Position numbers and translations under genes: made by a program. Below, piece by piece: positions 10,401 to 63,834 of a stretch of 64,000 bases of DNA. The stretch is taken from positions 1,426,001 to 1,490,000 of the forward strand of contig NZ_CP036164.1 of assembly GCF_004295485.1 (NCBI RefSeq). Reading direction: 5' to 3'. This stretch comes from Janibacter limosus. GTDB taxonomy: Bacteria; Actinomycetota; Actinomycetes; Actinomycetales; Dermatophilaceae. How positions within the stretch are numbered: position 1 is the first letter of the stretch; each line of letters opens with the position of its first letter. The notes beneath the pieces were generated by a model. The model did not search any database, had not been told where the DNA came from, and saw only the letters and a list, made by a program, of their open reading frames with translations.

Positions 10401-10604
10401 CTGGCTGCGCAGGCTCGTCGAGAGGCGGTCCCCGGGGACGTTGGCGTACAGCGCGAAGCAGATCGCGTCGAGGAGGCTCGTCTTGCCGGCGCCCGTGGCG
10501 CCGTGGATGAGGAAGAGACCCGAGGAGCTGATCTGCTCGAGGTCGAGGTCGATGGTCCCGGCGAAGGGACCGAAGGCCGTGGCCGTCAGACGGTGCAGCC
10601 TCAT
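7437..10604 (-). CDS. sbcC: Exonuclease SbcC (SMC-like ATPase)
   Basis: A 1055-residue Rad50/SbcC-type ATPase that works with SbcD to process hairpins and protein-blocked DNA ends. The N-terminus MRLHRLTATAFGPFAGTIDL leads to Walker A GATGAGKTS (about 35-43). Long coiled coils flank a central zinc hook CSVC at about residue 510. The C-terminal lobe has the signature LSGGESF and Walker B LFVDEGFGSLD. The ATG overlaps the sbcD stop by 4 nt, so the pair is translationally coupled. Confidence 0.97.
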   Translation of the reverse strand: MRLHRLTATAFGPFAGTIDLDLEQISSSGLFLIHGATGAGKTSLLDAICFALYANVPGDRLSTSLRSQHAEEATPTRVELELTLAGRRLRIRRHPAHERPKKRGTGTTTEPAGVLLEELTGHSWTTLSTRIDESARLLDDQLGMGLDQFRRVVMLPQGDFSAFLRASDEERREVLERLFDITEYTGIESHLVERRQQVEAALKESRTRLGSHVAHLVELLSSVDVDLPEPDLPWSQLSPAPLTLALDAVAAVLDTHAAEVMARVDEAQQADARAAAALTQARRAVELRARGGAARRALVLLEEEAPQHASSRATLQGAHAAAQVLPLVDAHTRSSTARAAAVAERARVVGSLPEPLREIEPEAWVAAAHEHDVLISRAQHDAEALTRLAAESPRVTRQIAEQTELLESARDAVLSAGEQADDAALQQLEIDRARARTDELAPQLRTLTRVIETRARLRQAAAEVREATDAAQSLREHVQDLRAAVQDLVTARLDNMAGELAAQLHDGDACSVCGSTTHPQPAQAARVVTPEEIRTAEQSVATAAQDHERAAQVRAAATSRLDVLRAEIAQLLDEGTGEELEGTTADGSASVADDETVSGDESARHAALTQQHDDLSRVTARADEVARLVITRTAAVAQAEQAVHTIEAGLTALSARHEQIAEHRASTLQRLRGLLDEHTATCPCTDVGSSRATHQALPSDLDDGDGVDPARELTATVRHHHESIALVEELVGATSTLARATVTHDEASSLLDAALDRHDFDDVASVMAATRERHEMTALQTEVEDHQRRLSAATAVLEEADVVAALATDAPDVESLTAAARSARIRADEAGQHQATAQATQRQLDRIAGHIRAECVTLGPAAEEAAVVRRMADLVTGTSSDNDKRMRLSTYVLAARLERIVELANHRLGVMADGRFELAHDDASARGQRRGGLGLLVRDLWTGRERPTNTLSGGESFTTSLALALGLADAIREESGGQEFGTLFVDEGFGSLDQDSLEQVLDVLDRLRDGGRTVGVVSHVAEMRTRITTRVRVDKSQHGSTIHVEGAGDDATDAA

Positions 10605-11776
10605 GCTGCGCCCCGACGCCTGCTGCGCCCCGCGTCCTCGGCTCGGTCCTGACGACGCCGCCCGGCCTCGAGCGCGCTCTGCAGCAGGTCGCGCTCGGCC
10701 TCGTCGGCCGCGGCACCGTGACGCACGTCGGTGACGAAGTCGCAGCAGACCTCCAACGGCTCGCGACGATCGATGCGCGAGGCATAGCTGCGCACCGCCT
10801 GCACCCGGCCGGTCGGGTCGAAGCGCAGCTGGAGCAGGTGGGGGAAGCGCTGGTGCAGCCGCTCGAGCGCGCCGACGGGCCGGACCGGGTCGGTCAGGGT
10901 GACCTGGACCCAGCTCGTCTCTGCGCCGTCGTGCTCACGGCTGTCGAGGATGTCGTCGAGGTCGCCCCTCAGGACGGCCAGCTCGCGGTGGACGGGAGCG
11001 GCGACCTGCTCGGTGCGGGCCTTGCCGTCGGGGTCGAGCGTGAGCAGGACGGAGCCCTTGGTGTGGCCCACCTCGCTGAAGGACATCGCGACGGGGGAGC
11101 CGCTGTAGCGCACGGTCTCGCTCACCTGCTGGGGCCGGTGCAGGTGGCCGAGCGCCCCGTAGGCGACCCCGTCGAAGGTGCTCGCCGGGACCATGGCGAC
11201 CCCACCGGCGGTGATGTCGCGCTCGGAGTCGCTGGCGGCGCCCCCGCTGGCGAAGCAGTGGGCCATGGCGACGGTGCGCGGACCGCGTCCAGCGGCATCT
11301 GCTCGCACCCGGTCCATGGCGGCGGCGAGGACGCCCGAGTGCGAGCGCTCGGTGGCGCCCAGCGCATCGGTGACCGAGCTCGCGGCCGGCTCGAGATAGG
11401 GGATCGGGTAGATCGCGGCGTCGTCGACGAGCACCGGCTGGCCGATGCTGCGGGCATCGGAGCGGATGTGCAGCCCGGCGCGGGAGAGCAGGTCGGCGGC
11501 GAACCCCAGCCGGATCGCGGAGTCGTGGTTGCCGCTGGAGAGGATGACCCGGGCGCCGGCGTCGATGAGTCGCGTCGCGGCCTCGGAGAGCAGCCGGACC
11601 GCGTCCGGTGCGGGCAGGGCACGGTCGTAGACGTCACCGGACACGAGGACCGCATCGACCCCCTCGCTGCGCACGGTCTCCACGAGGTGGTCCACGTACT
11701 CCGCCTGGGCACCGAGCAGACCCACCCCGTGGAAGGAGCGGCCCAGGTGCCAGTCGGAGGTGTGGATCAGCTTCAT
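10601..11776 (-). CDS. sbcD: Exonuclease SbcD (Mre11-type phosphoesterase)
   Basis: A 391-residue calcineurin-like nuclease, partner of SbcC. Metal-binding motifs are in order: HTSDWHLGR (D8, H10), VSGDVYDRA, SSGNHDS, AHCF and YGALGHLHRPQ. The C-terminal capping region (about 280-390) is charged and ends in a basic tail (RRRQDRAEDAGRSRRRGAA). No ribosome site is seen; instead a TAGCGT hexamer lies 6 nt before the ATG, indicating a leaderless transcript that continues into sbcC. Confidence 0.97.
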   Translation of the reverse strand: MKLIHTSDWHLGRSFHGVGLLGAQAEYVDHLVETVRSEGVDAVLVSGDVYDRALPAPDAVRLLSEAATRLIDAGARVILSSGNHDSAIRLGFAADLLSRAGLHIRSDARSIGQPVLVDDAAIYPIPYLEPAASSVTDALGATERSHSGVLAAAMDRVRADAAGRGPRTVAMAHCFASGGAASDSERDITAGGVAMVPASTFDGVAYGALGHLHRPQQVSETVRYSGSPVAMSFSEVGHTKGSVLLTLDPDGKARTEQVAAPVHRELAVLRGDLDDILDSREHDGAETSWVQVTLTDPVRPVGALERLHQRFPHLLQLRFDPTGRVQAVRSYASRIDRREPLEVCCDFVTDVRHGAAADEAERDLLQSALEAGRRRQDRAEDAGRSRRRGAA

Positions 11777-11788
11777 GCCCCCACGCTA
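11774..11788 (-). promoter_or_regulatory. Leaderless promoter of sbcDC
   Basis: Reading the minus strand, TAGCGT (11788-11783) is followed by GGGGGC and then ATG at 11776. The 6-nt gap places the transcription start at the start codon. Confidence 0.55.
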
Positions 11789-11818
11789 TGAGGGGGCACC
11801 GACAACGAGCCGGTGCGA

Positions 11819-11871
11819 CACCCCCTTCGCCCGACGAAGGGGGTGGGACGGCCCCCTGCGCCGTCCCACCC
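11819..11871 (-). terminator. Overlapping terminator hairpins after the ABC permease gene
   Basis: A 12-bp perfect hairpin (arms 11841-11852 and 11860-11871) lies about 18 nt past the stop of the permease gene on the minus strand. A second, 11-bp hairpin (arms 11819-11829 and 11835-11845; CACCCCCTTCG with its complement) overlaps it by 5 nt, so the two are mutually exclusive. The second stem carries the over-represented CGAAGGGGG motif in both orientations. Confidence 0.75.
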
Positions 11872-11888
11872 CCCGGATCGGTGGCCGC

Positions 11889-14363
11889 CTACTCGACGGC
11901 GAGGGCCTGCGCCGGCGCGACCTTGGTGGCCCGGTGCGCAGGCAGGACCGAGGCAAGGAGCCCGGCGAGGACCGCCACGAGCGCCACGGCGGCCAGCTGT
12001 CCCCACGGCAGCGTCGGTGAGACGGCCATGAACTCGCCGAAGAGGCTGCGCACGCCGGCCACGCCGTAGGCGACCCCGAGTGCGGTCCCGAGCACGACGC
12101 CGACGAGGGACAGCAGGACCGCCTCGATGGCGAGCATCGCCCGCAGCTGCCCGCGGGTGAGTCCCAGCGCACGCAGGAGCGCCGACTCGCGGGTGCGCTC
12201 GATGACGCTCAGCGAGAGGGTGTTGGCGATACCGACGACGGCGATGACGACCGATATGGCCAGCAGCGCGAGGACGACCGCGAGCGCGATGTCGAGTGCC
12301 TGCATGTTGGCGGCCCGCACGGGTGCCGCACCGCTGACCTGGCCCTCGTCGATGCTCCCGGCCAGCTCCTTGACCCCGTCGAGGGTCGCGGTGGCGTCTG
12401 CCCCGTCGGTGAACCTCGCCAGGAGTGCCGTCGTCGCCGGCTGGTGCTCGACCTCCGCGAGGGTCGCGGGAGTCACGAGCCAGGCCACGTCGAAGTCTCC
12501 AGCCACAGTCACCCGGGCCCGGGTGCGCCCGTCGGGTCCTTGCAGGATGACCTCGTCACCCGGGCGGATCCCGCTGGAGCCAGCAGCCTCCTCGGAGACG
12601 ACGACGCTCCCGTCGGTGACCGTGGGCACGGCGGTGGGGTCACGGACGACGTCACGCAGCCCCTCGGGCACCGCCGAGAGCATCGGCCGGGCCGAGGAAG
12701 AGCCCCAGCTGGCGTCCACGGTCGTCCCGCTCAGCGTGGCGGTGGCGGCGACGCCGTCCGTGGACCGGATGGCCGAGGCCGTCGCACCGGGGATGGCGCT
12801 GCCCTGCACCACGACGTCGACCGGGTACCGCGCGTTGACGAAGTCCGTGACCGCGGTGCGCGTCGTCGCGGCGCCGACCGCCGTCATCGTCACGAGAGTG
12901 ACCCCGACGAGCAGGGCAGAGGCGGTGGCCGCGGCCCGCGCCGGGTTGCGCACCGCGTTGTCGATGGCCAACCGGCCTGCTGGGCCGAAGGGTCGTGCGG
13001 CCACCAGGCCGATGGCACGGGCGGCCCAGGGCACGAGGACGCTGCCGGCCATGATCACGCCGGTGAAGGACACGAGTCCACCGACCACCCCGACGAGGAC
13101 GGACGGAAGGGAGCCGGCCACCACGAGCGCAGCGGCACCGGCGGCGACGAGGACGAGCCCGAGCGCGATGCGCACCCGGCCGCCACGACTGGTCGCGGTG
13201 ATCGCGGCGTCCGGCCGCAGTGCCGCGAGCGGAGCCACCCGGGATGACCGGACAACCGGCGGCAGCGCGGCGACGAGCACGACGAGCACTCCGACGACGA
13301 CAGGCACTGCGACGGCTCGCACCGGCACGGTGAAGACCAGGTCGGGCAGTGCGTCGCCGGCCAGCGCGCCTCCGGCCCGCGTGAGTCCCCAGGCCATCGC
13401 GATGCCCGTGATGACCCCCACCACCGAGAAGAGGACGCCGACGACGAGCGACTCGGCGAGAGCGGACCGGATGACCTGACCTCGGGTGGCGCCCACGGCC
13501 CGCAGCATCGCGGTCTCCCTGGCCCGGCGGGCCAGCAGGATCGAGAAGGTGTTGGCGATGACGATCGCGGAGACGAAGAGCGCGATGACCGCGAAGGCGA
13601 GGAAGAAGACCGCGAGGAAGTCGGTGCCTCCGGTGAACTCGGTGACCTTGTCGTCCGCGTGCTGGGTGGCGGTGACGACGGTGACGTCGACCCCCTTCGC
13701 CTCGAGGGCGGTGCGGATGGCGGCGGTGCTGGCCTCCTCGTCAGTGGCGGAGACGACGTCGATCTCCGCCCACCCCTTCGCCCCGGTCAGGCGGGTGACC
13801 CCGTCGGGCGTCGCGAAGACGGCTGGCGTGCCGCCGCCGTAGCGTGGGTCGCCAGCGACGTCGAGAATCCCGACGACCGTGGCCCGCACCGGTCCGGCGG
13901 ACCCGCCGGACGCGGCCGTGACGGGCACGGTGTCGCCCACCTCGAGCTGGCTGCCGGCCGCCACTGTCGCGGACAGGGCCACCTCGGTGGCTGCGCGCGG
14001 AGCCCGTCCCTCGAGCACGGGGTGTGGCGAGGTGGTCGACTCGGTGGTGACCATCGCGTAGGACTCACCGGTGGAGGTGCGCAGCAGGCCGGAGCCGGTC
14101 CGTACCGGGTCGACCGCTCGGACGCCGGCCACCTCCTCGACCTGATGGGCGACGGCGGCGGGGATGGTGTCGGCTCCTCGGGCGACGACCACGGAGGCAT
14201 AGGGCTCGTACTGGCCGGCCACGGACTGCCGGATCGAGGAGCTCATCGTGCCGGTGAGCACGAGCGTGGCAGCCATGAAGGCGATGCCGAGCACGACCGC
14301 GAGACCGGGCGCGAGGTACTGGCGCGACTGGTGGCGCAGCGAGGCGAGGGAGAGGGAGAGCAT
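11889..14363 (-). CDS. ABC transporter permease, FtsX/MacB family
   Basis: An 824-residue permease with the duplicated FtsX layout: a first TM helix near residues 20-40, an extracytoplasmic domain (about 45-235), three TM helices (about 250-370), a middle TM pair (about 400-450), a second outer domain, and a final set of three helices (about 690-810). The phrases RRARETAMLRAVGATRGQV and ERTRESALLRALGLTRGQL are the two conserved cytoplasmic loops after each FtsX core. The gene starts 2 nt after the ATPase stop. The substrate is unknown; such exporters move lipids, peptides or lipoproteins. Confidence 0.93.
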   Translation of the reverse strand: MLSLSLASLRHQSRQYLAPGLAVVLGIAFMAATLVLTGTMSSSIRQSVAGQYEPYASVVVARGADTIPAAVAHQVEEVAGVRAVDPVRTGSGLLRTSTGESYAMVTTESTTSPHPVLEGRAPRAATEVALSATVAAGSQLEVGDTVPVTAASGGSAGPVRATVVGILDVAGDPRYGGGTPAVFATPDGVTRLTGAKGWAEIDVVSATDEEASTAAIRTALEAKGVDVTVVTATQHADDKVTEFTGGTDFLAVFFLAFAVIALFVSAIVIANTFSILLARRARETAMLRAVGATRGQVIRSALAESLVVGVLFSVVGVITGIAMAWGLTRAGGALAGDALPDLVFTVPVRAVAVPVVVGVLVVLVAALPPVVRSSRVAPLAALRPDAAITATSRGGRVRIALGLVLVAAGAAALVVAGSLPSVLVGVVGGLVSFTGVIMAGSVLVPWAARAIGLVAARPFGPAGRLAIDNAVRNPARAAATASALLVGVTLVTMTAVGAATTRTAVTDFVNARYPVDVVVQGSAIPGATASAIRSTDGVAATATLSGTTVDASWGSSSARPMLSAVPEGLRDVVRDPTAVPTVTDGSVVVSEEAAGSSGIRPGDEVILQGPDGRTRARVTVAGDFDVAWLVTPATLAEVEHQPATTALLARFTDGADATATLDGVKELAGSIDEGQVSGAAPVRAANMQALDIALAVVLALLAISVVIAVVGIANTLSLSVIERTRESALLRALGLTRGQLRAMLAIEAVLLSLVGVVLGTALGVAYGVAGVRSLFGEFMAVSPTLPWGQLAAVALVAVLAGLLASVLPAHRATKVAPAQALAVE

Positions 14364-14365
14364 CG

Positions 14366-15136
14366 TCAGTCACCCAAACCCTTCATGGCTGCCAGGACGG
14401 AGTCCTCGGTCGGGTCGAGCAGCTCGCCGGCCAGCTGTCCATCGGCCAGCAGCAGGATCCGGTCGGCGTAGGACGCCGCCCGCGGGTCGTGGGTCACCAT
14501 GACGATCGTCTGACCGAGCTCACGGACGCTGGTGCGCAGGAAGGACAGCATCTGCGTGGAGGAGCGGGAGTCCAGCGCACCCGTGGGCTCGTCGGCGAAG
14601 AGGACGTCCGGTGCGGTGATCAACGCCCGAGCCATGGCGACTCGTTGTTGCTGGCCACCGGAGAGCTCACTCGGGCGGTGACTCAGCCGGTCGTCGATCC
14701 CGAGGATCCCGGTGATGTGGGCAAGGCGCTCGGCATCGACGGAGCGACCGGCGAGGGTGAGGGGCAGCACGATGTTCTGCCGCGCGGTGAGCATCGGCAG
14801 CAGGTTGAAGGACTGGAAGACGAAGCCGATGCGCTCGCGTCGCAGGAGTGTCAGCGCCTTGTCGGAGAGCCGGGTCAGGTCGGTGTCGCCGACGAGGACC
14901 TGGCCGCTCGTGGGTGTCTCGAGGCCGGCCAGGCAGTGCATGAGGGTCGACTTGCCGGACCCGGACGGGCCCATGATCGCGGTGAAGCGACCGGCCTCGA
15001 TGCTCACGTCGACCGCATCCAGAGCGGTGACGCCGGCTCCCTTCGCCCCGAATGTCTTGGTCAGGGCGATGGCGCGGGCAGCGATGGTCGGTGGTGGCGT
15101 GGTCGGGTGCGGTGCGTGCTGGGTGGTTGTCGTCAT
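14366..15136 (-). CDS. ABC transporter ATP-binding protein (MacB/LolD type)
   Basis: A 256-residue ATPase. Walker A is GPSGSGKST (about 56-64), the signature [15 protein letters not shown], and Walker [14 protein letters not shown] followed by the H-loop [11 protein letters not shown] 15136 is preferred because the frame upstream lacks family similarity and AAGGTGG lies upstream of this codon. It is followed after 2 nt by the FtsX permease and preceded by the response regulator gene with a gap of 76 nt, so kinase, regulator, ATPase and permease probably form one functional unit. Confidence 0.95.
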
Positions 15137-15911: not shown

Positions 15912-17149
15912 CGGGGCACCTCGTGGTCGAAGGGAAGAGCAGCGGTGACGAGGTAGCCGCCACCGCTGGCCGGGCCGGCCGTCATCGTCCCACCGACGCT
16001 GACGGCACGCTCGCGCATCCCGATCAGGCCGTGCCCGTTGCCGTCGTCGCTCGCCGCGGCGCCTCGCCCGTCATCGCGCACCTGTACCTGCAGCCCGCGG
16101 GCGACCTCGAGGAGGACCCGCACCCGGGCACCGGGACCGGCGTGCTTGATGACATTGGTCAGCGACTCCTGGACGATCCGGTAGGCCGCCAGGCCGACCT
16201 CGCGGGGCACGGTCGCCGGGTCGGGGCTCCCTTCGAGCCGGACGTCGATACCGGTCGCGGCCACCCGCTCCACGAGGTGGGGCAGCTCGGCCAGTCCCTC
16301 GGTCGGGGCGTAGTCGAGGCCGGGGTCGCCTCCCTCGCCCTCGGTGCGCAGCACCCCCACCAGCCGACGCGTCTCGGCCAGTGCCTCGCGCGCGGTCGTC
16401 CCGATGGTGGTGAGCGCTGCCCGGGCCTGCTCCCGGTCGAAGTCGGGGGAGTGGGTCGCGGAGTACGCGGCGCCATCCGACTGGACGACGACGACGCTGA
16501 GGGAGTGCGCGACGATGTCGTGCATCTCGCGGGCGATGCGGGTGCGCTCGTCCTGGGCCGCGAGGCGGGCTCGCTGGTCGCGGTCTCGGCGCAGGGCGTC
16601 GTTCTGCTCCTGCAGACGGGAGACCAGCTCCCGGCGCTTGCGGGTGAGGTCGCCCCACAGCCAGCACACGAGCGCCAGCCCGCTGTACATGAGCGCGGAG
16701 AAGACCAACGCCGTCAGGGGAGTGTCCTCGTAGCCGTCCCAGTCGATGATGGCGAGTGGGCCCGCCACCGTGGCGGCAACCAGGGCGACCTGCCGCACGC
16801 GCCGGTGCCGGGAGTAGGCGGCCACGGCGTACGCGGACATCAGGGCCGAGACGTTCGAGGGCAGGGGATCGCTGGCGACGAGGAGCTGCAGGAGGTGGCC
16901 CGCCGCGATGATGCCGAAGGAGATCTCGGGACGAGTTCGGCGCCACGCCAGCGGCAGCAGCTGGACCGTGGTCACCGTGACCATCCAGAAGGCCTCACGG
17001 CCGTCCATCGACGACACTGCCGTGACGAAGCCGAAGAGCACCCAGAGCCCGAGCGCCAGGAACGCGTCGACAAGCCCTCGGTGCGCCCGGAACCAGTCCT
17101 GCACCCGGGCGAAGGGAGCCGGGGACGAGGGCGCAGGGGCAGGCATCAC
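15908..17149 (-). CDS. Sensor histidine kinase (NarL-partner, HisKA_3 type)
   Basis: About 413 residues. Four to five membrane helices lie in the first 165 residues (AFLALGLWVLFGFVTAVSS; ISFGIIAAGHLLQLLV; VALVAATVAGPLAII; FSALMYSGLALVCWLW), then a coiled-coil linker and the HisKA_3 helix EDERTRIAREMHDIVAHSL-type motif (here DERTRIAREMHDIVAHSLSV, phospho-His at about 210). The HATPase domain follows, with VRDDGRG and GHGLIGMRERA. GTG 17149 is chosen over ATG 17146 because TACGCT lies exactly 6 nt upstream. Longer in-frame starts (for example 17185) are possible. No large extracellular sensor domain is seen. Confidence 0.93.
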   Translation of the reverse strand: MMPAPAPSSPAPFARVQDWFRAHRGLVDAFLALGLWVLFGFVTAVSSMDGREAFWMVTVTTVQLLPLAWRRTRPEISFGIIAAGHLLQLLVASDPLPSNVSALMSAYAVAAYSRHRRVRQVALVAATVAGPLAIIDWDGYEDTPLTALVFSALMYSGLALVCWLWGDLTRKRRELVSRLQEQNDALRRDRDQRARLAAQDERTRIAREMHDIVAHSLSVVVVQSDGAAYSATHSPDFDREQARAALTTIGTTAREALAETRRLVGVLRTEGEGGDPGLDYAPTEGLAELPHLVERVAATGIDVRLEGSPDPATVPREVGLAAYRIVQESLTNVIKHAGPGARVRVLLEVARGLQVQVRDDGRGAAASDDGNGHGLIGMRERAVSVGGTMTAGPASGGGYLVTAALPFDHEVPR

Positions 17150-17161: not shown

Positions 17162-17266
17162 GGCATGACGAAGGGGGCCGCGCATCCGACCACGGTCTGA
17201 TCCTCGCCACGGACCCGACCCGTGGGTAGATTCATCGTCACCAGTCGCTCGGCAAGAGGTGGAGTC

Positions 17267-19434: not shown

Positions 19435-19890
19435 ATGACGAGTGACGAGACGACCGGCGGAAGCGGCCCCGGGCACCGCAGCGTGGAGCTGACGCGCCTG
19501 GCCCTCGGGCGCTACGAGTTGCACAACGCGCGTGGCGGCACGATCACCATCGGCGACGGCTCGACCGACGACTTCACCCCGGTCGAGCTCCTTCTCGCCG
19601 CGCTGGCCGGATGCAGCTCGGTCGACGTGGACCACATCACCTCACGTCGGGCCGAGCCGGACTCCTTCGTCGTCGTCGCCCAGGGGGAAAAGGCGTCGAC
19701 GCCGCAGGACGGCAACCACATGACCGACCTCGAGCTGACCTTCCGCATCGGCTTCCCCGAGGGCGAAGGGGGCGACGCCGCGCGAGCAGCCTTCCCCCGG
19801 TCGGTCGCCCAGTCCCGCGACCGCCTGTGCACGGTCTCGCGGACCGTCCAGATCGGCACCCCGGTCGAGATGTCGGCAGAGGACGCCTGA
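19435..19890 (+). CDS. OsmC family protein
   Basis: A 151-residue OsmC/Ohr-superfamily protein. The first conserved cysteine is in AALAGCSSVDVDHI (C60) and the second in SRDRLCTVSRT (about C134), preceded by FTPVELLLAAL, all typical of peroxide- or hydroperoxide-reducing members. GGAGG sits upstream of the ATG. It is followed after 6 nt by a flavin monooxygenase gene, so the two may be co-expressed in a redox role; that link is inference. Confidence 0.9.
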   Translation: MTSDETTGGSGPGHRSVELTRLALGRYELHNARGGTITIGDGSTDDFTPVELLLAALAGCSSVDVDHITSRRAEPDSFVVVAQGEKASTPQDGNHMTDLELTFRIGFPEGEGGDAARAAFPRSVAQSRDRLCTVSRTVQIGTPVEMSAEDA

Positions 19891-19896
19891 GCCTGC

Positions 19897-20955
19897 ATGC
19901 GCCATGACGTCGACGTCGCGGTCGTCGGGGGTGGTCAGGCGGGGCTCGTGACCGCCTACCACCTGCGCAGGCTCGGCATCGAGCACGTCGTCCTCGACGA
20001 GCAGCGGGAGCCGGGAGGGGCCTGGCAGGCCACCTGGCCCTCACTTCGCCTCTTCTCGCCGGCGGCGTACTCCTCCCTCCACGGGCGGCCCATGCCACCT
20101 CACCCCGACATCTTCCCGCCCGTCGACCACGTGATCGCCTACCTGCGCGCCTACGAGGAGCACTACGGACTGGCGGTCGAGCGCCCCGTCACCGTCCGCG
20201 AGGTGCGCTCGGCGCCCGACGCGCTCACGGTGGTCACCGACCGTGGCGACCTGCGCGCCCGCCATGTCGTCAACACGACCGGCACGTGGTCGGCTCCCTT
20301 CGTGCCCCTCGTGGAGGGACAGGCCAGCTTCGCCGGCCGCCAGCTGCACAGCGCCCACTACCGCGGGCCCGCCGACTTCGCCGGGCAGCGGGTCGCCGTG
20401 GTGGGTGGCGGCAACTCGGGCGTGCAGATCGTGGCCGACCTCGTGGGGGTCACCGAGCGCGTCTCCCTCGTGTCGGCCCGACGGCTGCGCTTCCTCCCCG
20501 ACGACGTCGACGGGAGGCACCTCTTCGACCGGGCGACCGCCCGGCAGCGAACGCCCGATCCCCGCGACCTGGAGGCGGAGTTCGTCGGCAACATCGTCGC
20601 GTTGCCCCGGGTCCGCGAGGCACGGGCCCAGGGCGCCCTTCGTCTCCGGGCGATGTTCGACCGGATCGTGCCGGAGGGTGCCGTGATCGGCCGCGACCGG
20701 CTCGATCTCGACGCGATCCTCTGGTGCACCGGGTTCCGCCCGGCCCTGCGCCACCTGCGCTCGCTGAGGTTGCGCACCTCCGACGGCTACCCGGAGGTCG
20801 TCGACAACCGGTCGGTGAAGGACCCGCGGGTCTCCTTCGTCGGGTACGGCGACTGGACGGGTCCGGCGTCGGCGACGCTGATCGGGGTCGGGCGCACCGC
20901 CAAAGCCCTTGCGGCAGCCATCGCGGCCGACCGCGGGTCGAGTCAGCCCGCCTGA
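19897..20955 (+). CDS. Flavin-containing monooxygenase-like oxidoreductase
   Basis: A 352-residue FAD/NAD(P)H enzyme of the CzcO/trkA-like group. The FAD-binding VAVVGGGQAGLVTAYHL is at about 7-23, and the NAD(P)H-binding VAVVGGGNSGVQI at about 166-178. Between them is WQATWPSLRLFSPAAYSSLHG, a phrase seen in flavin monooxygenase-like and thioredoxin-reductase-like proteins. The C-terminal ATG-like motif is WCTGFRPALRHL. Its 3' end overlaps the convergent yceI-like gene by 13 bp. Substrate unknown. Confidence 0.87.
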   Translation: MRHDVDVAVVGGGQAGLVTAYHLRRLGIEHVVLDEQREPGGAWQATWPSLRLFSPAAYSSLHGRPMPPHPDIFPPVDHVIAYLRAYEEHYGLAVERPVTVREVRSAPDALTVVTDRGDLRARHVVNTTGTWSAPFVPLVEGQASFAGRQLHSAHYRGPADFAGQRVAVVGGGNSGVQIVADLVGVTERVSLVSARRLRFLPDDVDGRHLFDRATARQRTPDPRDLEAEFVGNIVALPRVREARAQGALRLRAMFDRIVPEGAVIGRDRLDLDAILWCTGFRPALRHLRSLRLRTSDGYPEVVDNRSVKDPRVSFVGYGDWTGPASATLIGVGRTAKALAAAIAADRGSSQPA

Positions 20956-23270: not shown

Positions 23271-23290
23271 GTGCAGGAGGGCGAAGGGGG

Positions 23291-24484
<1,194 letters not shown>

Positions 24485-25528: not shown

Positions 25529-25634
25529 AGTTCTCCTGTCGGGTCTGCGGGGGTGACCGCGGTCACGACAGTAGCGCGAAGGGGGAGTCCTCCCCGTGGT
25601 TCGCCGCGTGGCGCGTCACTACGCTGGCCGCACC

Positions 25635-28572: not shown

Positions 28573-28587
28573 CCAGCCGCTGGACCA

Positions 28588-28637: not shown

Positions 28638-28640
28638 CGG

Positions 28641-52461: not shown

Positions 52462-53838
52462 ATGTCCGTCGACATCGACAGCCCCGGGGGTCCCTCGCGG
52501 GTCAACGAGGACTCCGAGCTCAAGCAGGGCGTCACCGGACGACTGCTCTACTTCTACGTCCTGGGTGACGTCCTCGGGTCCGGGATCTACGTCCTCATCG
52601 GCTTGGTGGCCGGCGCCGTGGGAGGCGCCTTCTGGGCCGCCTTCGCCGTCGGTGTCACGGTCGCCACGATCACCGGTCTGGCCTACGCCGAGCTCGTGAC
52701 CAAGTACCCGCAGGCCGCGGGTGCCGCGCTCTACGTCAACAAGGCCTTCAAGAACAAGACGCTGACCTTCTTCATCACCTTCTGCATGCTCTCCGCGAGC
52801 TACGCCGCAGCCGGTTCGCTCGCCACGGGCTTCGCGCAGTACTTCGGTGAGGTCTGGGCGGCAGCCCCGGCCCTCGTCGTGGCCCTGGCCTTCATCGTCG
52901 GCCTGGCGATCATCAACTTCGTCGGCATCACCGAGTCGGTCGTGGCCAACATGATCATGACGTTCATCGAGATCGCCGGCCTGATCATCGTGCTCATCAT
53001 CGGAGTCGTCGCCACCTTCCAGGGCAAGGTCGACTTCTCCCGGGTCACCGAGTTCTCCACCGAGAGCAACCCGGCCCTCGGGCTCCTCGCCGGTGTGGCC
53101 CTGGCGTTCTTCGCGATGACCGGCTTCGAGAACGCCGCCAACGTCGCCGAGGAGACGCAGAACCCCCGCCGCGACTTCCCGCGCGCGCTCATCGGGGGCA
53201 TGGCGACCGCCGGCGTGCTGTACGTCCTCATCGCGGTCACTGCCGCGATCACCGTGCCCATCGAGCAGCTGGCCCAGTCCGACGCCGCGCTGCTCGAGGT
53301 CGTCAAGGCCGGCATCCTGCCCCTGTCCGTGGCGGTCCTGACGATCGTCTTCGCGATCATCGCCATGGTCGCCATCACCAACACGTGCCTGGTCTGCCTC
53401 GTGACCGAGTCGCGGATCCTCTACGGCATGGCGCGCGAGGACGTCGTCCCCGCTCCCTTCGCCAAGGTGAGCAGCCGTCAGGTGCCCTGGCTGGCCATCC
53501 TCTTCTCGGTCCTCGTGATCGCCGGCCTGCTCTTCTCGGGCGCCGACCTCGCCCAGCTGGCCAATGTCACCGTGGTCTTCACGCTGCTCATCTACGCGCT
53601 CGTCATCATCTCCGCGGTGAAGCTCGACAAGCTCGACCGCACCGAGGAAGCCTTCAGGGCACCGCGCGCCCTCCTGGCCATCGGTGTCGTCGCCAACTTC
53701 CTGATCCTCGGGTACGTCATCTGGGACGACCCCGGCTCACTCCTGTACTGCGCCGCGCTCCTGGCCGTCGGCGTGGTCCTCTTCATCGCCGAGCGACTCC
53801 TCGGCGGTGGCCGCCCCACGACCGACCTGGAGAGCTGA
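52462..53838 (+). CDS. APC-family amino acid permease
   Basis: A 458-residue transporter with about 12 membrane helices. The first helix has the APC glycine motif (VLGDVLGSGIYVLIGLVAGAVGG), and FFAMTGFENAANVAEETQNPRRDFPRALIGG is the conserved helix 6-loop 7 region. ATG 52462 follows GGGAGGAAGG. A universal stress protein gene follows after 3 nt, a pairing common for APC permeases. The transported amino acid cannot be told. Confidence 0.93.
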   Translation: MSVDIDSPGGPSRVNEDSELKQGVTGRLLYFYVLGDVLGSGIYVLIGLVAGAVGGAFWAAFAVGVTVATITGLAYAELVTKYPQAAGAALYVNKAFKNKTLTFFITFCMLSASYAAAGSLATGFAQYFGEVWAAAPALVVALAFIVGLAIINFVGITESVVANMIMTFIEIAGLIIVLIIGVVATFQGKVDFSRVTEFSTESNPALGLLAGVALAFFAMTGFENAANVAEETQNPRRDFPRALIGGMATAGVLYVLIAVTAAITVPIEQLAQSDAALLEVVKAGILPLSVAVLTIVFAIIAMVAITNTCLVCLVTESRILYGMAREDVVPAPFAKVSSRQVPWLAILFSVLVIAGLLFSGADLAQLANVTVVFTLLIYALVIISAVKLDKLDRTEEAFRAPRALLAIGVVANFLILGYVIWDDPGSLLYCAALLAVGVVLFIAERLLGGGRPTTDLES

Positions 53839-54322: not shown

Positions 54323-55066
54323 ATGCGTTTCGCAGTCGCCGGTGGTACCGGCGTCGTCGGTCGACCCGTGGTCGCCGCGGCAGAGCTGCGCGGCCACGAG
54401 GTCGTCGTCCTCTCCCGGGCGAAGGGGGTGGACCTCACCTCGTCGTCCGGCCTGGCGCGACACCTGGCCGGGGTCGACGCGGTCATCGACGTCACCTCGG
54501 TCCTGACCGTCTCGGGACCGAGGTCAGTTGCCTTCTTCGAGCGGGTCACGGGCAACCTCCTGCGCGAGGGCCACGCGGCGGGTGTGGGCCACCACGTCGC
54601 CCTGTCGATCCTCGGAGCCCGCGAGATCGACTCCGGGTACTACGCCGGCAAGCGGGCCCAGGAGCGAGCGGTCCTGGCCGACCCCACGGGCACGGTCGTG
54701 CGCGCCGCCCAGTTCCACGAGTTCGGCCTGCAGACCCTCGAGCGCACCCGCTTCGGCCCGCTCGCCCTGGTCCCGCGGATCCGCTCGCAGCCCGTCGCCA
54801 CGAGCGAGGTCGCCGACCTGCTCGTCGACGTGGCCGAGGGACGACCACTCGCAGACGGCCCCTCGATCGCCGGGCCCGACGTGCTCTCGGTCGCCGAGAT
54901 GTCGCGCCGGGTGCTCTCTGCGCAGGGTGAGCGCGTGCGCGTCGTCGAGTTCCCGATGCCCGGCACCTTCGGTCGCGGGCTGCGAGGAGACCTCCTGCTC
55001 GCCCGGCCGGACAGCAGGATCGGGGCGATCGGCTACGCACAGTGGTTGGAGACGCAGCGGGCCTGA
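54323..55066 (+). CDS. NAD(P)-binding atypical SDR (NmrA-like)
   Basis: A 247-residue protein beginning MRFAVAGGTGVVGRPVVAAAELRGHEVVVLSR, the NmrA/atypical-SDR nucleotide motif GGTGVVG. It then reads VDAVIDVTSVLTVSGPRSVAFFERVTGNLLREG and HHVALSILGAREIDSGYYAGKRAQERAVLA (YxxxK). It may be a regulator or a reductase of the SDR_a5-like type. Third gene of the permease operon. Confidence 0.88.
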   Translation: MRFAVAGGTGVVGRPVVAAAELRGHEVVVLSRAKGVDLTSSSGLARHLAGVDAVIDVTSVLTVSGPRSVAFFERVTGNLLREGHAAGVGHHVALSILGAREIDSGYYAGKRAQERAVLADPTGTVVRAAQFHEFGLQTLERTRFGPLALVPRIRSQPVATSEVADLLVDVAEGRPLADGPSIAGPDVLSVAEMSRRVLSAQGERVRVVEFPMPGTFGRGLRGDLLLARPDSRIGAIGYAQWLETQRA

Positions 55067-55098: not shown

Positions 55099-55947
55099 GA
55101 CGCAGACACCAGCACCTCCACCCGCATCGCCGTGCTCATCGACTGCGACAACGTCTCGGCCAAGCACACGGCCGCCGTCCTGGAGGAGCTGGCGAAGTAC
55201 GGCACCCCGACGGTCAAGCGCGCCTACGGCGACTGGACGACCACGCAGCTGGGCGGCTGGAAGCCCGAGCTGCACCGCAACGCCATCCAGCCCGTGCAGC
55301 AGTTCGCCTACACGGTCGGCAAGAACTCCACCGACTCGGCGCTGATCATCGACGCGATGGACCTGCTCTGGCAGGGCAATGTCGAGGCCTTCGCCCTCGT
55401 CTCCTCGGACTCGGACTTCACCCGGCTGGCCACGCGGCTGCGGGAGTCGGGCAAGCGCGTCTACGGCCTGGGTCTGCGCAAGACGCCGGAGTCGCTGCGT
55501 CGTGCGGTCGACCAGTTCATCTTCCTCGAGCTGCTGCAGGAGCAGGCTCGTGACGAGGACGACGTCACCGACGAAGGGAGCCGCCCGACCGAGCAGGCCG
55601 ACTCCCCCGACACGACGATCAACCTGCAGTCCGCCCTGACCAAGGCGGTCAATGCCACCTCCGGGGACGACGGGTGGAGCACCCTCGGGACCGTCGGCCA
55701 GCACCTGAGCCGAGCCCAGGCGGACTTCGACCCACGTGCCTTCGGTCACCAGAAGCTGTCCACCCTCGTCGAGGAGCAGCCCTACCTGGAGACCCGCGCC
55801 GAGGGATCGCAACGACAGGTGCGCCTGCGGACCAAGGCCCGCAAGAGCGCTGCGAGAGCGGCCTCCTCACCCACGACCAAGAGCACCAGGACCACGCCCA
55901 AGGCGACCACGACCACGAAGGCGACGAAGGCCACGAGGGGCAGCTGA
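55096..55947 (+). CDS. NYN-domain RNase-like protein with LOTUS/OST-HTH domain
   Basis: A 283-residue protein. The NYN (PIN-like) domain is at about 10-160 with acidic residues in VLIDCDNVSAKH, DSALIIDAMDLLW and LVSSDSDFTRLATRLRESG. An OST-HTH/LOTUS domain at about 175-250 contains LQSALTKAVNATSGDDGWSTLGTVGQHL and LVEEQPYLETR. The tail (about 250-283) is a Lys/Thr/Ala-rich low-complexity stretch. NYN-LOTUS proteins are predicted RNA-processing enzymes; the target is unknown. Confidence 0.92.
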   Translation: MDADTSTSTRIAVLIDCDNVSAKHTAAVLEELAKYGTPTVKRAYGDWTTTQLGGWKPELHRNAIQPVQQFAYTVGKNSTDSALIIDAMDLLWQGNVEAFALVSSDSDFTRLATRLRESGKRVYGLGLRKTPESLRRAVDQFIFLELLQEQARDEDDVTDEGSRPTEQADSPDTTINLQSALTKAVNATSGDDGWSTLGTVGQHLSRAQADFDPRAFGHQKLSTLVEEQPYLETRAEGSQRQVRLRTKARKSAARAASSPTTKSTRTTPKATTTTKATKATRGS

Positions 55948-56050
55948 CCCCCTTCGTCAGATCACGCGTGGAGTGGCCCTGTGCACAGGGCCATGTACGC
56001 AGGCCCCGGACAGGCCTAAGATGTCCTCGGTCTGCTTCAGGAGAAAATTG

Positions 56051-57400: not shown

Positions 57401-57420
57401 TCCGCCCCCCGCGAGCCGGG

Positions 57421-59385: not shown

Positions 59386-59399
59386 GACACGGCCGACGC

Positions 59400-59446
59400 A
59401 CGAAGGGGGCGCCCCCACTGATCACCGGTGGGGGCGCCCCCTTCGT
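59400..59446. terminator. Bidirectional terminator rbpA/fxsA
   Basis: Perfect 19-bp arms (59400-59418 and 59428-59446) with a 9-nt loop between convergent genes. The stem ends carry CGAAGGGGG in both orientations. The last stem base touches the fxsA stop codon. Confidence 0.88.
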
Positions 59447-60731: not shown

Positions 60732-62307
60732 CGGTGGAGGCTTCCTCGATCTGGGCGGTGGAGCGGTCGTCGGTCGACCGGGACTCGACCCTACCCGTCC
60801 GGGATCGACGCAGCCGCCACGCCACGGCGATCAGCAGCAGAAGCGCGCTGCCCCACTCGACCCACGGTCCGAGACGGTCCGAGATCGTCAGGCCGCTGCG
60901 CAGCACGACGTTGTCGACTGGTTGGGCAGCGGTGAAGAGCTCGGTGGTCGGAGTGCTCGACCCGTCAGGGTTGATGAACCCCGAGACCCCGACGGTGGAG
61001 ACGTGCGCCACGCTGCGACCGTGCTCGATGGCCCGGATCCGCGAGATGGCGTACTGCTGCGTCGACTCGGCGGAGTACCCGAAGGTCGCGTTGTTGGTCT
61101 GCACGACGAGGAGGCTGGGCACTCCCTTCGCCTCGGCGTCCTTGACCGCCGAGCGCATCAGGCCGTCGTAGGCCACCTCGAAGCAGATCGTCGGTACTGC
61201 GGTGAAGTCACCCTCTCGGCCCTGCACCGGGAAGGCGACGTTGCGGTCGCCCTTGGCGAACCCGACCCGCACCAGGTCCACCTTGGAGCTGAAGAGCCGG
61301 TAGAACTCACGGTTGGGTACGTACTCGGCGAAGGGGACGGGGTGCTGCTTGACGTAGCGCTGCGGCTCTCCCCCACCCGGCTCGTACAGCAGTGAGGCAT
61401 TGGACACCGCTGGCGCCGGCTCGTCGAGTATCGCGCCGATGATGATGGGTATGTCGACCGCGGCCAGAGCGCGCTGGACCTGCTCCTTGGCATCATCATT
61501 GCGCAGCGGGTCGATGTCGGAGGAGTTCTCCGGCCAGATGACCAGGTCGAGGTCGTCGTACCGCTCTGCCAAGGCCTCGGTGCCGGCGACATGGTTGTCC
61601 AGGACCTTGCGCCGCTCCGCGTTGAAGTCCAGCCCGGCACGGGGCACGTTGCCCTGCACGAGGCCGATCCTGGCCGTGGACTCACCGCTGGTGGGCACGG
61701 GAACGGCGAAGGCACCCAGACCCGACACGAGGGCCACCACGACGGCGACGACGGGCAGGCGTCGGGTCACCGCGAGCAGGACGAGCGGTACGGCGATCAG
61801 GGCCACGACGAAGGTGATGAGCGGTGCTCCCCCGATCGCGGCCCATTGGGCGAAGGGGGTGTCGGCCTGGGAGAAGGCGATCCGCGCCCAGGGGAAGCCG
61901 CCGTAGGGCAGGCTCCCCCGGATCCACTCCTGAAGCACCCACAGCACGGGGATGAGCAGTGCAGCCGGAAGCAGCCGACCCGCTCGCAGGAGGGGACGCT
62001 GCACCACCGCCAGCACCGCGCCCATCGCGGCCAGGTAGAGACCCTCGGTGAGGGCCAGGGCGAACCAGGGGAACTTGCCGACGAAGATGCCCGACCAGCT
62101 GAGGGTCGGAAGGAAGCAGGCGACGCCGGCGACCAGTCCCAGCAGGGCGCCCGTGCGCGGCGACACGTCCCACATCGAGATGCCCACGAGGGCGACGCCG
62201 ACGATCGCGAGGTAGGCGAGGTTGTTGTCGGGGAAGGACAGCCACAGGCACAGGCCGCCGGCCAGGGCCAGCAGCAGCCGTGCGGGCAGCCGCTCGATCA
62301 CTCCCAT
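60724..62307 (-). CDS. lnt: Apolipoprotein N-acyltransferase
   Basis: A 527-residue enzyme acylating the N-terminal cysteine of lipoproteins. About 7 N-terminal membrane helices (LLLALAGGLCLWLSFPDNNLAYLA, WVLQEWIRGSLPYGGFPW) precede the nitrilase domain (about 220-480). The catalytic residues are E in LVIWPENSSDID, K in the RYVKQHPVPFAEYVP region and C in PTICFEVAYDGLMR; a final helix anchors the C-terminus. The start overlaps the lrp-like gene by 10 bp; ppm overlaps its end. Confidence 0.95.
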   Translation of the reverse strand: MGVIERLPARLLLALAGGLCLWLSFPDNNLAYLAIVGVALVGISMWDVSPRTGALLGLVAGVACFLPTLSWSGIFVGKFPWFALALTEGLYLAAMGAVLAVVQRPLLRAGRLLPAALLIPVLWVLQEWIRGSLPYGGFPWARIAFSQADTPFAQWAAIGGAPLITFVVALIAVPLVLLAVTRRLPVVAVVVALVSGLGAFAVPVPTSGESTARIGLVQGNVPRAGLDFNAERRKVLDNHVAGTEALAERYDDLDLVIWPENSSDIDPLRNDDAKEQVQRALAAVDIPIIIGAILDEPAPAVSNASLLYEPGGGEPQRYVKQHPVPFAEYVPNREFYRLFSSKVDLVRVGFAKGDRNVAFPVQGREGDFTAVPTICFEVAYDGLMRSAVKDAEAKGVPSLLVVQTNNATFGYSAESTQQYAISRIRAIEHGRSVAHVSTVGVSGFINPDGSSTPTTELFTAAQPVDNVVLRSGLTISDRLGPWVEWGSALLLLIAVAWRLRRSRTGRVESRSTDDRSTAQIEEASTGA

Positions 62308-62732: not shown

Positions 62733-62745
62733 GGCGACGGACCCG

Positions 62746-62761
62746 TAAGGTCGGGCCCATG
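62746..62761 (+). promoter_or_regulatory. Leaderless promoter of the 5'-3' exonuclease gene
   Basis: TAAGGT at 62746-62751, a 7-nt gap, then ATG 62759. The 38-bp divergent region is too short for normal leaders on both sides. Confidence 0.5.
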
Positions 62762-63694
62762 TCCGACTTGGCACGCGACCGCCTGCTCCTGCTCGACTCC
62801 GCCTCGCTGTACTTCCGTGCCTTCTACGGGGTACCTGAGCGGGCGCCGGTGCCCTCCGGTCTGCCGACCAACGCCGTTGCCGGCTTCCTCGACATGCTCG
62901 CCACCCTCGTCACGCGATACCGGCCCACGCACGTCGTGGCCTGCTGGGACGACGACTGGCGGCCGCAGTGGCGCGTCGACGCCATCCCCACCTACAAGGC
63001 CCACCGGGTCGCCGAGGACACCGCCGACGGTGAGGAGGTCCCCGACGAGCTGTCCCCGCAGGTGCCGGTCATCGTCGACGCGCTCGAGGCGATCGGCATC
63101 GCGCGCGTCGGGGCGGCCCACTACGAGGCCGATGACGTCATCGGCACCTATGCCATGCGCTACCGCGACGTGATGCCGGTCGACATCGTCACCGGCGACC
63201 GCGACCTCTTCCAGCTCGTCGACGACGCCTCGGCCACCCGCGTGCTCTACACGGCCCGCGGCGGGGTGCGCGACCCCGACGTCGTCACCCAGGCCTTCCT
63301 CGAGAGCAAGTACGGGGTGACCACCGGCGATGCCTATGCCGACATGGCCGCGATGCGCGGGGACACCAGCGACGGGTTGCCGGGAGTCAAGGGGATCGGC
63401 GACAAGACGGCCGCGACCCTCATCCGGGACTTCGGCTCGCTGGCGGGTGTGCGCGCGGCCCTCGCCGCCGGCGACCCGACGATCAAGGGAGCGCGCCGCC
63501 TGCGGCTCGAGGAAGCCAGCGACTACCTCGACGTCGCTCCGCTCGTCGTGCGGGTCGCCCACGACGTGCCGGTCGGTAACGGCGACATCCGACTCCCTTC
63601 GGACATCGTCGACCCGGCAGCGATGAGCCGGCTGGCCGTGGAGCACGGCCTGACCTCAGCCTTCGACCGGGTCGCCACCGCCCTGCGCTCCTGA
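62759..63694 (+). CDS. 5'-3' exonuclease (PolA N-terminal-type)
   Basis: A 311-residue FEN-type nuclease: LLLLDSASLYFRAFYGVP, HVVACWDDDWRPQWRVDAIPTYKAHR, HYEADDVIGTYAMRY, VDIVTGDRDLFQLVDD, then the helix-hairpin-helix DTSDGLPGVKGIGDKTAATLIRDFGSL. The acidic metal residues (D, EADD, GDRD) are present. It is a stand-alone homologue of the polymerase I exonuclease domain, as found next to helY in mycobacteria, and probably acts on flaps or RNA primers. Confidence 0.95.
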   Translation: MSDLARDRLLLLDSASLYFRAFYGVPERAPVPSGLPTNAVAGFLDMLATLVTRYRPTHVVACWDDDWRPQWRVDAIPTYKAHRVAEDTADGEEVPDELSPQVPVIVDALEAIGIARVGAAHYEADDVIGTYAMRYRDVMPVDIVTGDRDLFQLVDDASATRVLYTARGGVRDPDVVTQAFLESKYGVTTGDAYADMAAMRGDTSDGLPGVKGIGDKTAATLIRDFGSLAGVRAALAAGDPTIKGARRLRLEEASDYLDVAPLVVRVAHDVPVGNGDIRLPSDIVDPAAMSRLAVEHGLTSAFDRVATALRS

Positions 63695-63704
63695 CCCCGT
63701 CCCC

Positions 63705-63830
63705 CAGGTCCGCATTTCCTTAAGGTCGTGCGCTCTCAGGTGCGCATTTCCTTAAGGTCGTGCGCTCTCAGGTGCGCATTTCCTTAAGGTCGTGCGCTCT
63801 GGTGCGCATTTCCTCAAGGTCGTGCGAAGG
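63705..63830. repeat. 32-bp tandem repeat, about four copies
   Basis: Three almost identical 32-bp units at 63705-63736, 63737-63768 and 63769-63800, then a diverged 30-nt fourth (63801-63830). Each contains CGCATTTCCTTAAGGTCGTG with an inner palindrome CCTTAAGG (CCTCAAGG in copy 4). The block is AT-richer than its surroundings and fills the gap between the convergent exonuclease and helY genes. There is no spacer variation, so it is not CRISPR. Confidence 0.9.
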
Positions 63831-63834
63831 GAGG

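What the first reader, a model, noticed from the sequence alone, without database searches (positions are those of the whole stretch)
10562..63833. Over-represented, strand-unbiased motif CGAAGGGRGY
Seen: about 55 copies of CGAAGGG on both strands (about 27 plus, 28 minus) against roughly 15 expected at 70 percent GC, and 10 exact CGAAGGGAGC against about 0.3 expected. Copies fall in different reading frames (AKGA, VEGS/LEGS, APF, LPS) and force codons that appear rare here (GAA, GCT, CCT), so protein sequence does not explain them. The motif also forms the ends of terminator stems at 11819, 28588 and 59400, as uptake sequences do in Neisseria and Pasteurellaceae. Few or none occur in 4.4-10.5 kb and in the low-GC segment at 45.8-47.9 kb. 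Possible roles: Chi-like site, DNA-uptake signal, or nucleoid/segregation protein site; the lack of local strand bias argues against a simple KOPS.
Basis: partly seen in the sequence, partly recalled or inferred. Interest (0 to 1): 0.78.

Follow-up and report, generated by a model that had tools for sequence, protein, structure and literature searches.

The report
Likely DNA-uptake tags in Janibacter
A short DNA word is repeated about 1,350 times in this actinobacterium, and many of its relatives carry a different word in the same way, which looks like a self-recognition tag for taking up DNA, a kind of system so far described only in two families of distantly related bacteria.

Summary
The genome is a Janibacter (Actinomycetota). 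It occurs 1,350 times in 3.55 Mb (668 forward, 682 reverse) against 3 for the reversed pattern. Inside genes it is 6 to 8 times above the stricter codon-preserving null, outside gene times denser, often as inverted pairs, without strand bias over 21 stretches. All 16 genomes of the genus searched and both of one other genus have the excess; 129 other relatives do not. Many other genera of the family carry a different non-palindromic word instead: GTATGMCG in 39 of 89 family genomes; GGATGCCG in a few more and in three genomes of another family. No family genome has both GTATGMCG and GRCGAAGGGRG in excess. This is the genomic signature of DNA uptake sequence dialects, described so far only in Neisseriaceae and Pasteurellaceae. 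ComEA, ComEC and Tad/Flp pilus genes are present, but untagged relatives have ComEC and such ATPases too. Chi and KOPS are contradicted by strand symmetry. Uptake itself and the receptor are unproven.

The parts
11821..11829 (-). CGAAGGGRG site, full GRCGAAGGGRG, left arm of hairpin
11835..11843 (+). CGAAGGGRG site, full GRCGAAGGGRG, right arm of hairpin
13691..13699 (-). site, full 11-mer, in gene call 11889-14363(-)
15037..15045 (-). site, full 11-mer, in gene call
16227..16235 (-). site, 9-mer only, in gene call
17110..17118 (+). site, full 11-mer, intergenic or gene edge
17169..17177 (+). site, full 11-mer, intergenic or edge
19764..19772 (+). site, full 11-mer, in gene call
20294..20302 (-). 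site, 9-mer only, in gene call
23282..23290 (+). site, full 11-mer, intergenic or edge
23980..23988 (-). site, full 11-mer, in gene call 23291-24484(-), the query
25577..25585 (+). site, 9-mer only, intergenic or edge
26631..26639 (-). site, 9-mer only, in gene call
26945..26953 (+). site, full 11-mer, in gene call
28585..28640 (.). hairpin between genes with CGAAGGG at both stem ends (CGAAGGGTGG, not the full motif)
30062..30070 (-). site, full 11-mer, in gene call
30246..30254 (+). site, 9-mer only, in gene call
30783..30791 (-). site, full 11-mer, intergenic or edge
31461..31469 (-). site, full 11-mer, in gene call
33059..33067 (+). site, 9-mer only, in gene call
38676..38684 (-). site, 9-mer only, intergenic or edge
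38780..38788 (+). site, full 11-mer, intergenic or edge
39030..39038 (+). site, 9-mer only, in gene call
41074..41082 (+). site, 9-mer only, intergenic or edge
48111..48119 (-). site, 9-mer only, in gene call
50245..50253 (-). site, full 11-mer, in gene call
51056..51064 (+). site, 9-mer only, in gene call
51250..51258 (-). site, full 11-mer, in gene call
53453..53461 (-). site, full 11-mer, in gene call
54420..54428 (+). site, full 11-mer, in gene call
55572..55580 (+). site, full 11-mer, in gene call
55948..55956 (-). site, full 11-mer, intergenic or edge
59401..59409 (+). site, 9-mer only, left arm of hairpin
59437..59445 (-). site, full 11-mer, right arm of hairpin
61122..61130 (-). site, full 11-mer, in gene call
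61851..61859 (+). site, full 11-mer, in gene call
63593..63601 (-). site, 9-mer only, in gene call
63825..63833 (+). site, 9-mer only, intergenic or edge

Best explanation
GRCGAAGGGRG is a DNA uptake sequence: a self-recognition tag that makes Janibacter prefer kin DNA during natural transformation. Proposed steps: a surface receptor, probably a minor pilin of the Tad/Flp pilus, binds the tagged double-stranded DNA (inferred). Pilus retraction brings it to ComEA and ComEC, which pass one strand inside, where RecA recombines it into the chromosome (inferred from known systems). Tagged alleles are taken up more often than untagged ones, so tags accumulate all over the genome in both orientations by molecular drive, wherever protein and RNA function tolerate them, above all between genes and in hairpin stems (the distribution is shown, the cause inferred). 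Relatives carry other tags (GTATGMCG, GGATGCCG and probably more), i.e. dialects. The Janibacter lineage seems to have exchanged the family's tag for an unrelated one.
For: Copy number and sharpness: 1,350 copies against 3 for the reversed motif; core CGAAGGG nearly invariant, flanks GR and RG preferred. Not protein-driven: 231 against 36.9 under a codon- and context-preserving null. Strand-symmetric: 155 forward, 153 reverse in 21 stretches. Density 2.19 per kb outside or at the edge of gene calls against 0.54 inside. Of 32 close pairs, 17 are converging inverted pairs; inverted pairs are reported in all DUS-bearing Neisseriaceae genomes (PMC3630211, passage). Sites are kept between species of the genus: 65 of 123 aligned sites against about 33.5 expected from GC-matched 9-mers, and 50 of 81 against 21.0 at a second locus. 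Dialects: GTATGMCG 1,079-4,748 copies in 39 of 89 family genomes, balanced on both strands, denser outside genes and in inverted pairs; GGATGCCG 3,816-3,949 in three genomes of two genera. 0 of 89 family genomes combine GTATGMCG excess with the Janibacter motif. comEA-comEC and three Tad-type ATPase clusters in the genome; [quoted passage not shown]
Against: No experiment. No paper holding both 'Janibacter' and 'natural transformation' is in the library searched, and no receptor was found. ComEC is in 82 of 88 and a T2SSE-family ATPase (PF00437) over the cut-off in 142 of 144 relatives searched, also in genomes without a recognised tag, so the machinery does not separate tagged from untagged. 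Density is not lower in genes of atypical codon use. Neither intragenic bias reported for known uptake sequences (PMC2346458, abstract) is seen: one orientation favoured in genes (here 115 sense, 116 antisense), and, for Pasteurellaceae, bias to gene ends (flat here). The Janibacter motif shares no core with GTATGCCG, whereas the Neisseriaceae dialects share CTG. In one relative (G003) sites are kept no better than background, 2 of 13. The exclusion of the two dialects may rest on a single event, as the carriers of GRCGAAGGGRG form one clade in the CarB, ComEC and ComEA trees. In two GTATGMCG genomes (G030, G077) the excess over the reversed control is only about 2.5-fold.
Confidence: 0.74

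Rival explanations
1. A Chi-like recombination site read by RecBCD, AddAB or AdnAB at broken ends.
For: Many copies of a short asymmetric GC-rich word; Chi differs between bacteria (recalled).
Against: Known Chi sites are biased to the leading strand (recalled); here no placement of origin and terminus (arcs of 7-14 of 21 stretches) gives more than 53.9% leading, the mean of random data being 55.7%. Chi has no evident reason to pair into hairpins or to be 4 times denser outside genes.
Confidence: 0.05
2. A segregation or replication-termination signal (KOPS-like site for FtsK; the core resembles KOPS GGGNAGGG and the B. subtilis GAGAAGGG, both recalled).
For: Seven of eight letters of GCGAAGGG agree with these (recalled) consensus words.
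Against: KOPS must point along each replichore; over all placements there is no bias. GAGAAGGG itself occurs 12 + 12 times and GGGNAGGG 67 + 51 times in 464 kb.
Confidence: 0.02
3. A highly iterated element of another kind, like cyanobacterial HIP1: a site of an orphan methyltransferase, a nucleoid protein or a repair system, which spreads for reasons unrelated to uptake.
For: HIP1 is found in high frequency in cyanobacteria and linked to methyltransferases (PMC4390886, start of abstract in a search listing). No uptake data exist here.
Against: HIP1 is palindromic, these words are not. Inverted pairs and different words in related genera are the DUS pattern.
Confidence: 0.14
4. A dispersed mobile repeat (REP or MITE-like) of which the motif is a part.
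For: Stem-loops occur.
Against: Little similarity beyond the 11 bases in 486 aligned copies of CGAAGGG; 231 of 308 CGAAGGGRG copies lie inside gene calls.
Confidence: 0.02
5. By-product of protein sequence, codon usage or composition.
For: High GC; density is lower in 2-kb windows under 69% GC (33 sites in 46 windows against 272 in 186).
Against: Codon- and context-preserving null gives 36.9 against 231; copies in both orientations and mainly in two of three frames, with rare codons GAA, GCT, CCT.
Confidence: 0.01

Closest known systems
DUS of Neisseriaceae (PMC3630211: abstract, the section on dialects and passages seen)
   Same: Short non-palindromic word in about 900-6,000 copies, inverted pairs linked to terminators, different dialects in related genera, at times two dialects in one genome (here G058), few near-misses (there 21% more hits with one mismatch allowed in K. 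oralis).
   Different: Actinobacteria, Tad/Flp-type rather than type IVa pilus genes, no ComP-like receptor found here, motif unrelated, no functional test yet; the Janibacter word shares no core with the family's other words.
USS of Pasteurellaceae (AAGTGCGGT, ACAAGCGGT types; PMC12616744, passages)
   Same: Same genomic signature, two word types in one family.
   Different: USS sites are biased to gene ends (PMC2346458, abstract); here the 10 bins along genes are flat.
Natural transformation of Micrococcus luteus (PMC4322843, passages; PMC6370729, passages)
   Same: An actinobacterium (same order, recalled) with comEA/comEC homologues and two tad clusters needed for transformation.
   Different: The paper's main text has 0 occurrences of 'uptake sequence'.
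HIP1 of cyanobacteria (PMC4390886, search listing only)
   Same: Highly iterated octamer.
   Different: Palindromic; linked to methyltransferases.

Membership tests
DNA uptake sequence (DUS/USS) | Short non-palindromic word, hundreds to thousands of copies, far above chance | tested here: met
   1,350 against 3; codon null on 464 kb
DNA uptake sequence (DUS/USS) | Both orientations, without replichore bias | tested here: met
DNA uptake sequence (DUS/USS) | Intergenic enrichment and inverted pairs able to form hairpins | tested here: met
   GTATGMCG. For GGATGCCG only 4 close pairs were seen, 2 inverted, 2 tandem
DNA uptake sequence (DUS/USS) | Shared by close relatives, with dialects in the wider family | tested here: met
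   66 genome-wide; on samples
DNA uptake sequence (DUS/USS) | Dialects of a family share an inner core | tested here: inconclusive
   GTATGACG, GGATGCCG, GTATGCGG and GAATGCCG are each one change from GTATGCCG; GRCGAAGGGRG is not related to them
DNA uptake sequence (DUS/USS) | Competence machinery encoded | tested here: met
   ComEC, ComEA with SLBB and HHH domains, TadA, DUF4244 (Flp-like), TadE; it does not discriminate tagged from untagged relatives
DNA uptake sequence (DUS/USS) | Reported correlate, not defining: one orientation favoured in reading frames; in Pasteurellaceae also bias to gene ends | tested here: not met
   115 sense, 116 antisense; flat along genes
DNA uptake sequence (DUS/USS) | Depleted in foreign DNA | tested here: inconclusive
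   no trend with codon typicality; lower density in low-GC windows; one 10.4-kb empty stretch holds a phage-type integrase (L123)
DNA uptake sequence (DUS/USS) | Motif raises uptake and transformation; specific receptor | not testable with these tools
   needs bench work
Chi site | Leading-strand bias | tested here: not met
KOPS / SRS | Oriented from origin to terminus on each arm | tested here: not met
HIP1-like element | Palindrome | tested here: not met
   the sequences themselves

The most novel reading that the evidence does not exclude
A third, independently evolved system of DNA uptake sequences, the first in Gram-positive bacteria: an actinobacterial family (and at least one other family of its order) in which a Tad/Flp-type competence pilus reads lineage-specific tags of 8 to 11 bases, with three dialects counted genome-wide and several more suggested by samples, and in which the Janibacter lineage replaced the ancestral tag completely by an unrelated one.
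Probability: 0.68. Interest if true: 0.93.

Novelty: new variant of a known kind. Interest (0 to 1): 0.86.

Why it matters
[quoted passage not shown] An actinobacterial case with several dialects would suggest that uptake tags evolved a third time, on different pilus machinery and in cells without an outer membrane. It would make old questions testable in new material: how a tag and its receptor change together, whether tags spread by drive alone, and whether they act as species barriers. In practice it might tell how to transform poorly tractable actinobacteria, by adding the right tag.

Tried and rejected
Chi and KOPS: rejected by strand symmetry. Codon or protein cause: rejected. Repeat element: rejected by nearly flat flanks. 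Islands as tag-free zones: no trend with codon typicality, though low-GC windows are poorer. I saw no dnaA among the first five gene calls of the contig by eye, so replichores were tested over all origin placements instead. Spacing of sites is about random (coefficient of variation near 1).

ComEC as the carrier of specificity: the ComEC tree puts all its 14 rows with GRCGAAGGGRG in one clade (support 100), while the neighbouring LeuS puts G052 (genus g38) beside tag-poor G016 (support 99). I first took this as transfer of the competence genes with the tag. CarB then also grouped G052 with the genus (support 97). PyrG does not decide: G052 is 87% identical to G001, G004 and G015 and 86% to G016, whose score lies above that of several members of the genus. 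The query protein is only 72% identical between G000 and G052. So the place of g38 is open and I make no claim from it. A look at pilins of one tad cluster in eight genomes (by regular expressions, several not found) showed a conserved Flp and gave no receptor.

Papers: nine searches. Two gave no paper. Of the others I saw the listings, some in part only (20 of 108, 93 and 35; 6 of 9; 8 of 67). None of the listed titles reports uptake sequences in actinobacteria. A 2023 paper says none have been reported for mycobacterial species (PMC10526031, passage). Most subscription papers are not held, so this does not prove absence in print.
Full report
Identity and observation. The window is bases 1,426,001-1,490,000 of a single 3,545,254-base contig. 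The protein encoded at 23291-24484(-) is 96% identical to one from Janibacter sp. Soil728 and 93-94% to those of J. limosus and J. anophelis, so I take the genus, g1 in the searches, to be Janibacter: Intrasporangiaceae, Micrococcales, Actinomycetota. CGAAGGG occurs 56 times in the window against 10.0 in shuffles, CGAAGGGRGY 30 times against 0.72, and the latter 665 + 667 times in the genome against 12 + 7 for the reversed pattern.

The motif. I fetched 20 spread 20-kb stretches, which with the window make 464 kb. The profile around 486 copies of CGAAGGG shows information at -2 (G 66%), -1 (A or G 70%), +7 (A or G 81%) and +8 (G 74%), C of the core being 0, and little further out. The motif is therefore GRCGAAGGGRG: 170 copies in 464 kb against 4.7 expected from a third-order Markov model, 1,350 in the genome against 3 for its reverse. 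Single changes in the seven core bases bring the count close to background: 90 in sum, against a mean of 61 (sd 21) for 25 permuted cores and 28 for the reversed motif. Changes in the flanks are better tolerated. Such sharpness is not foreign to DUS: in Kingella oralis allowing one mismatch added 21% (PMC3630211, section on dialects).

Not protein, not strand. My own gene caller (hexamer model, 458 calls, 92% coding) is simple, so gene borders are approximate. Shuffling synonymous codons while keeping neighbouring bases gave 36.9 (sd 4.3; 30 shuffles) CGAAGGGRG against 231 observed, and 15.1 (sd 3.2) GRCGAAGGGRG against 122; the looser shuffle gave 28.7 and 11.0 (40 shuffles). Copies lie 115 times on the gene's strand and 116 times on the other. 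Density is 0.54 per kb in gene calls and 2.19 per kb outside or at their edge. In 21 stretches there are 155 forward and 153 reverse copies; over all placements of origin and terminus tried the best leading fraction is 0.539, below the mean of random data (0.557). Of 32 neighbouring pairs within 80 bases, 17 converge (+-), 6 diverge, 9 are tandem. Low-GC windows are poorer in sites: 33 in 46 two-kb windows under 69% GC, 272 in 186 others; genes of atypical codon use are not.

Conservation. At the locus of 23291-24484, 65 of 123 site alignments in 11 other genomes of the genus keep the motif, against 33.5 expected from GC-matched 9-mers at the same distance (sums mine; a change within R counts as kept). 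It is not uniform: 8 of 11 in G009, 2 of 13 in G003. At the comEC locus it is 50 of 81 in 12 genomes, against 21.0 (the locus of G008 was not used). The rows are related, so these are not independent trials. Outside the genus, left out of the sums: G052 2 of 4 and 0 of 6, G022 0 of 1, G050 0 of 1, G047 0 of 5, G016 0 of 4. G052 has the excess, so there most sites have turned over.

Distribution. Of 147 genomes searched, the 16 of the genus have 632-1,432 CGAAGGGRGY and the two of genus g38 have 926 and 702; the other 129 have 6-95. In 396 genomes drawn across the phylum, none but G000 has more than 72 GRCGAAGGGRG (no other genome of the genus or of g38 is in that draw). Named public records agree: 10, 5, 9 and 2 copies in L031-L034 (Janibacter, 5-21 kb) and 0 in L035, L036, L037, L044 and L049.

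Dialects. A word search in loci of other genomes (5-46 kb each) gave a variant of GTATGCCG as the top octamer in 17 of 32 other family genomes: GTATGCCG itself or shifted by a base, GTATGACG, GAATGCCG, GTATGCGG, GTATGGCG or GGATGCCG (one search lists variants); more sequence from seven genomes confirmed GGATGCCG and GTATGCGG and suggested GTACGCC. The same search ranks CGAAGGG words first in most Janibacter samples, not in G001 and G002. Genome-wide, GTATGMCG has 1,079-4,748 copies in 39 of 89 family genomes (30 of 53 genera), nearly equal on both strands, for example 2,386 + 2,362 in G022 (reversed control 419 there; controls are raised in these genomes, and in G030 and G077 the excess is only about 2.5-fold). 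L035, an Intrasporangiaceae MAG, has 24 in 19 kb. The 18 genomes with GRCGAAGGGRG have 18-69. None of 58 genomes of other families is raised. In 298 kb of 11 carrier genomes the word is 137 forward, 128 reverse, 1.43 per kb outside genes against 0.82 inside, and 11 of 16 close pairs are inverted as CGGCATAC...GTATGCCG. GGATGCCG reaches 3,816, 3,949 and 3,838 copies in G031, G041 and G078 and 2,195 in G058 (which also has 1,235 GTATGMCG); in the other family f19 it reaches 4,491, 4,128 and 1,548 (G124, G139, G108). It has 1,336 in G016 but 614 in G067 of the same genus. Elsewhere it is mostly 1 to 4 times its reversed control, up to 6.6 times in some GTATGMCG genomes, so modest ratios mean little. 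Within one genus the word can be present or absent (G040 1,122, G083 41 GTATGMCG). Of the family genomes, 32 of 89 have neither 500 GTATGMCG nor the GRCGAAGGGRG excess; G031, G041 and G078 of these clearly have GGATGCCG, G016 perhaps.

Machinery. The genome encodes ComEA (SLBB and helix-hairpin-helix) and ComEC side by side at about 1.908-1.911 Mb and three clusters with TadA-type ATPases at 286, 709 and 722 kb, with DUF4244 (Flp-like), TadE and Rv3654c-like minor pilins. [quoted passage not shown] But ComEC is in 82 of 88 and a T2SSE-family ATPase over the cut-off in 142 of 144 genomes searched, tagged or not.

Trees. In ComEC (48 rows, 14 carriers) and CarB (30 rows, 16 carriers) the carriers of GRCGAAGGGRG are one clade (SH-aLRT 100 and 97), in ComEA (46 rows, 13 carriers) likewise with 90. 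LeuS (40 rows) puts G052 beside G016, and PyrG identity does not decide. The second g38 genome is in no tree. One origin of the Janibacter tag is the simplest reading; transfer between genera is not excluded. The tag then replaced, or arose after the loss of, a GTATGCCG-like tag.

Reading. A sharp, non-palindromic word in more than a thousand copies, on both strands, dense outside genes and in hairpin stems, conserved among close relatives and exchanged for another word in more distant ones: this is the pattern of DUS and USS, and I know of no other kind of element with all of it. A receptor that selects DNA at the cell surface explains why the word is everywhere, why orientation does not matter and why words differ between lineages. 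The missing step is any experiment. A paper of October 2025 names Neisseriaceae and Pasteurellaceae as the only families with this ability (PMC12616744, passage), and among the listings of nine literature searches I saw no actinobacterial case.

Noticed in passing
G108, G124, G139 (family f19, other than the window's family): GGATGCCG in 1,548, 4,491 and 4,128 copies, strand-balanced: a second family of the order with an uptake-like word.
   Followed up: no
G040 and G083 (same genus g26): 1,122 against 41 copies of GTATGMCG: loss or change of the word within a genus.
   Followed up: no
G058: Two related words together, 1,235 GTATGMCG and 2,195 GGATGCCG, like Simonsiella muelleri with two DUS dialects (PMC3630211).
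   Followed up: no
L111:13605, L127:576, L127:13101, L027-L030: Repeat units with CTCCTTAAGG, mostly spaced 31 bases apart, in several places of the genome.
   Followed up: no
L142, L143 (G009); L114, L117, L119, L122, L124, L125 (G000): Palindrome CCCTAGGG over-represented: 3 sites in 40 kb of G009, 6 in 464 kb of G000 (one search counts each twice).
   Followed up: no
L123:35-10461: 10.4-kb stretch without a CGAAGGGRG site, with a phage-type integrase and a DsbD-like gene: perhaps an acquired element.
   Followed up: partly
window 1-11820: Longest stretch without CGAAGGGRG in the sample (11.8 kb), over genes that include sbcC and sbcD; unexplained.
   Followed up: partly
G052 LeuS (L160:11262-14162): LeuS of g38 groups with G016 (support 99), against CarB and ComEC: likely transfer of one or the other.
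   Followed up: partly
G032 (L196): Its word GTATGCCGTC shares ATGCCGTC with the Neisseria DUS ATGCCGTCTGAA (12-mer recalled; its 10-mer GCCGTCTGAA is in PMC6370729); probably chance.
   Followed up: no
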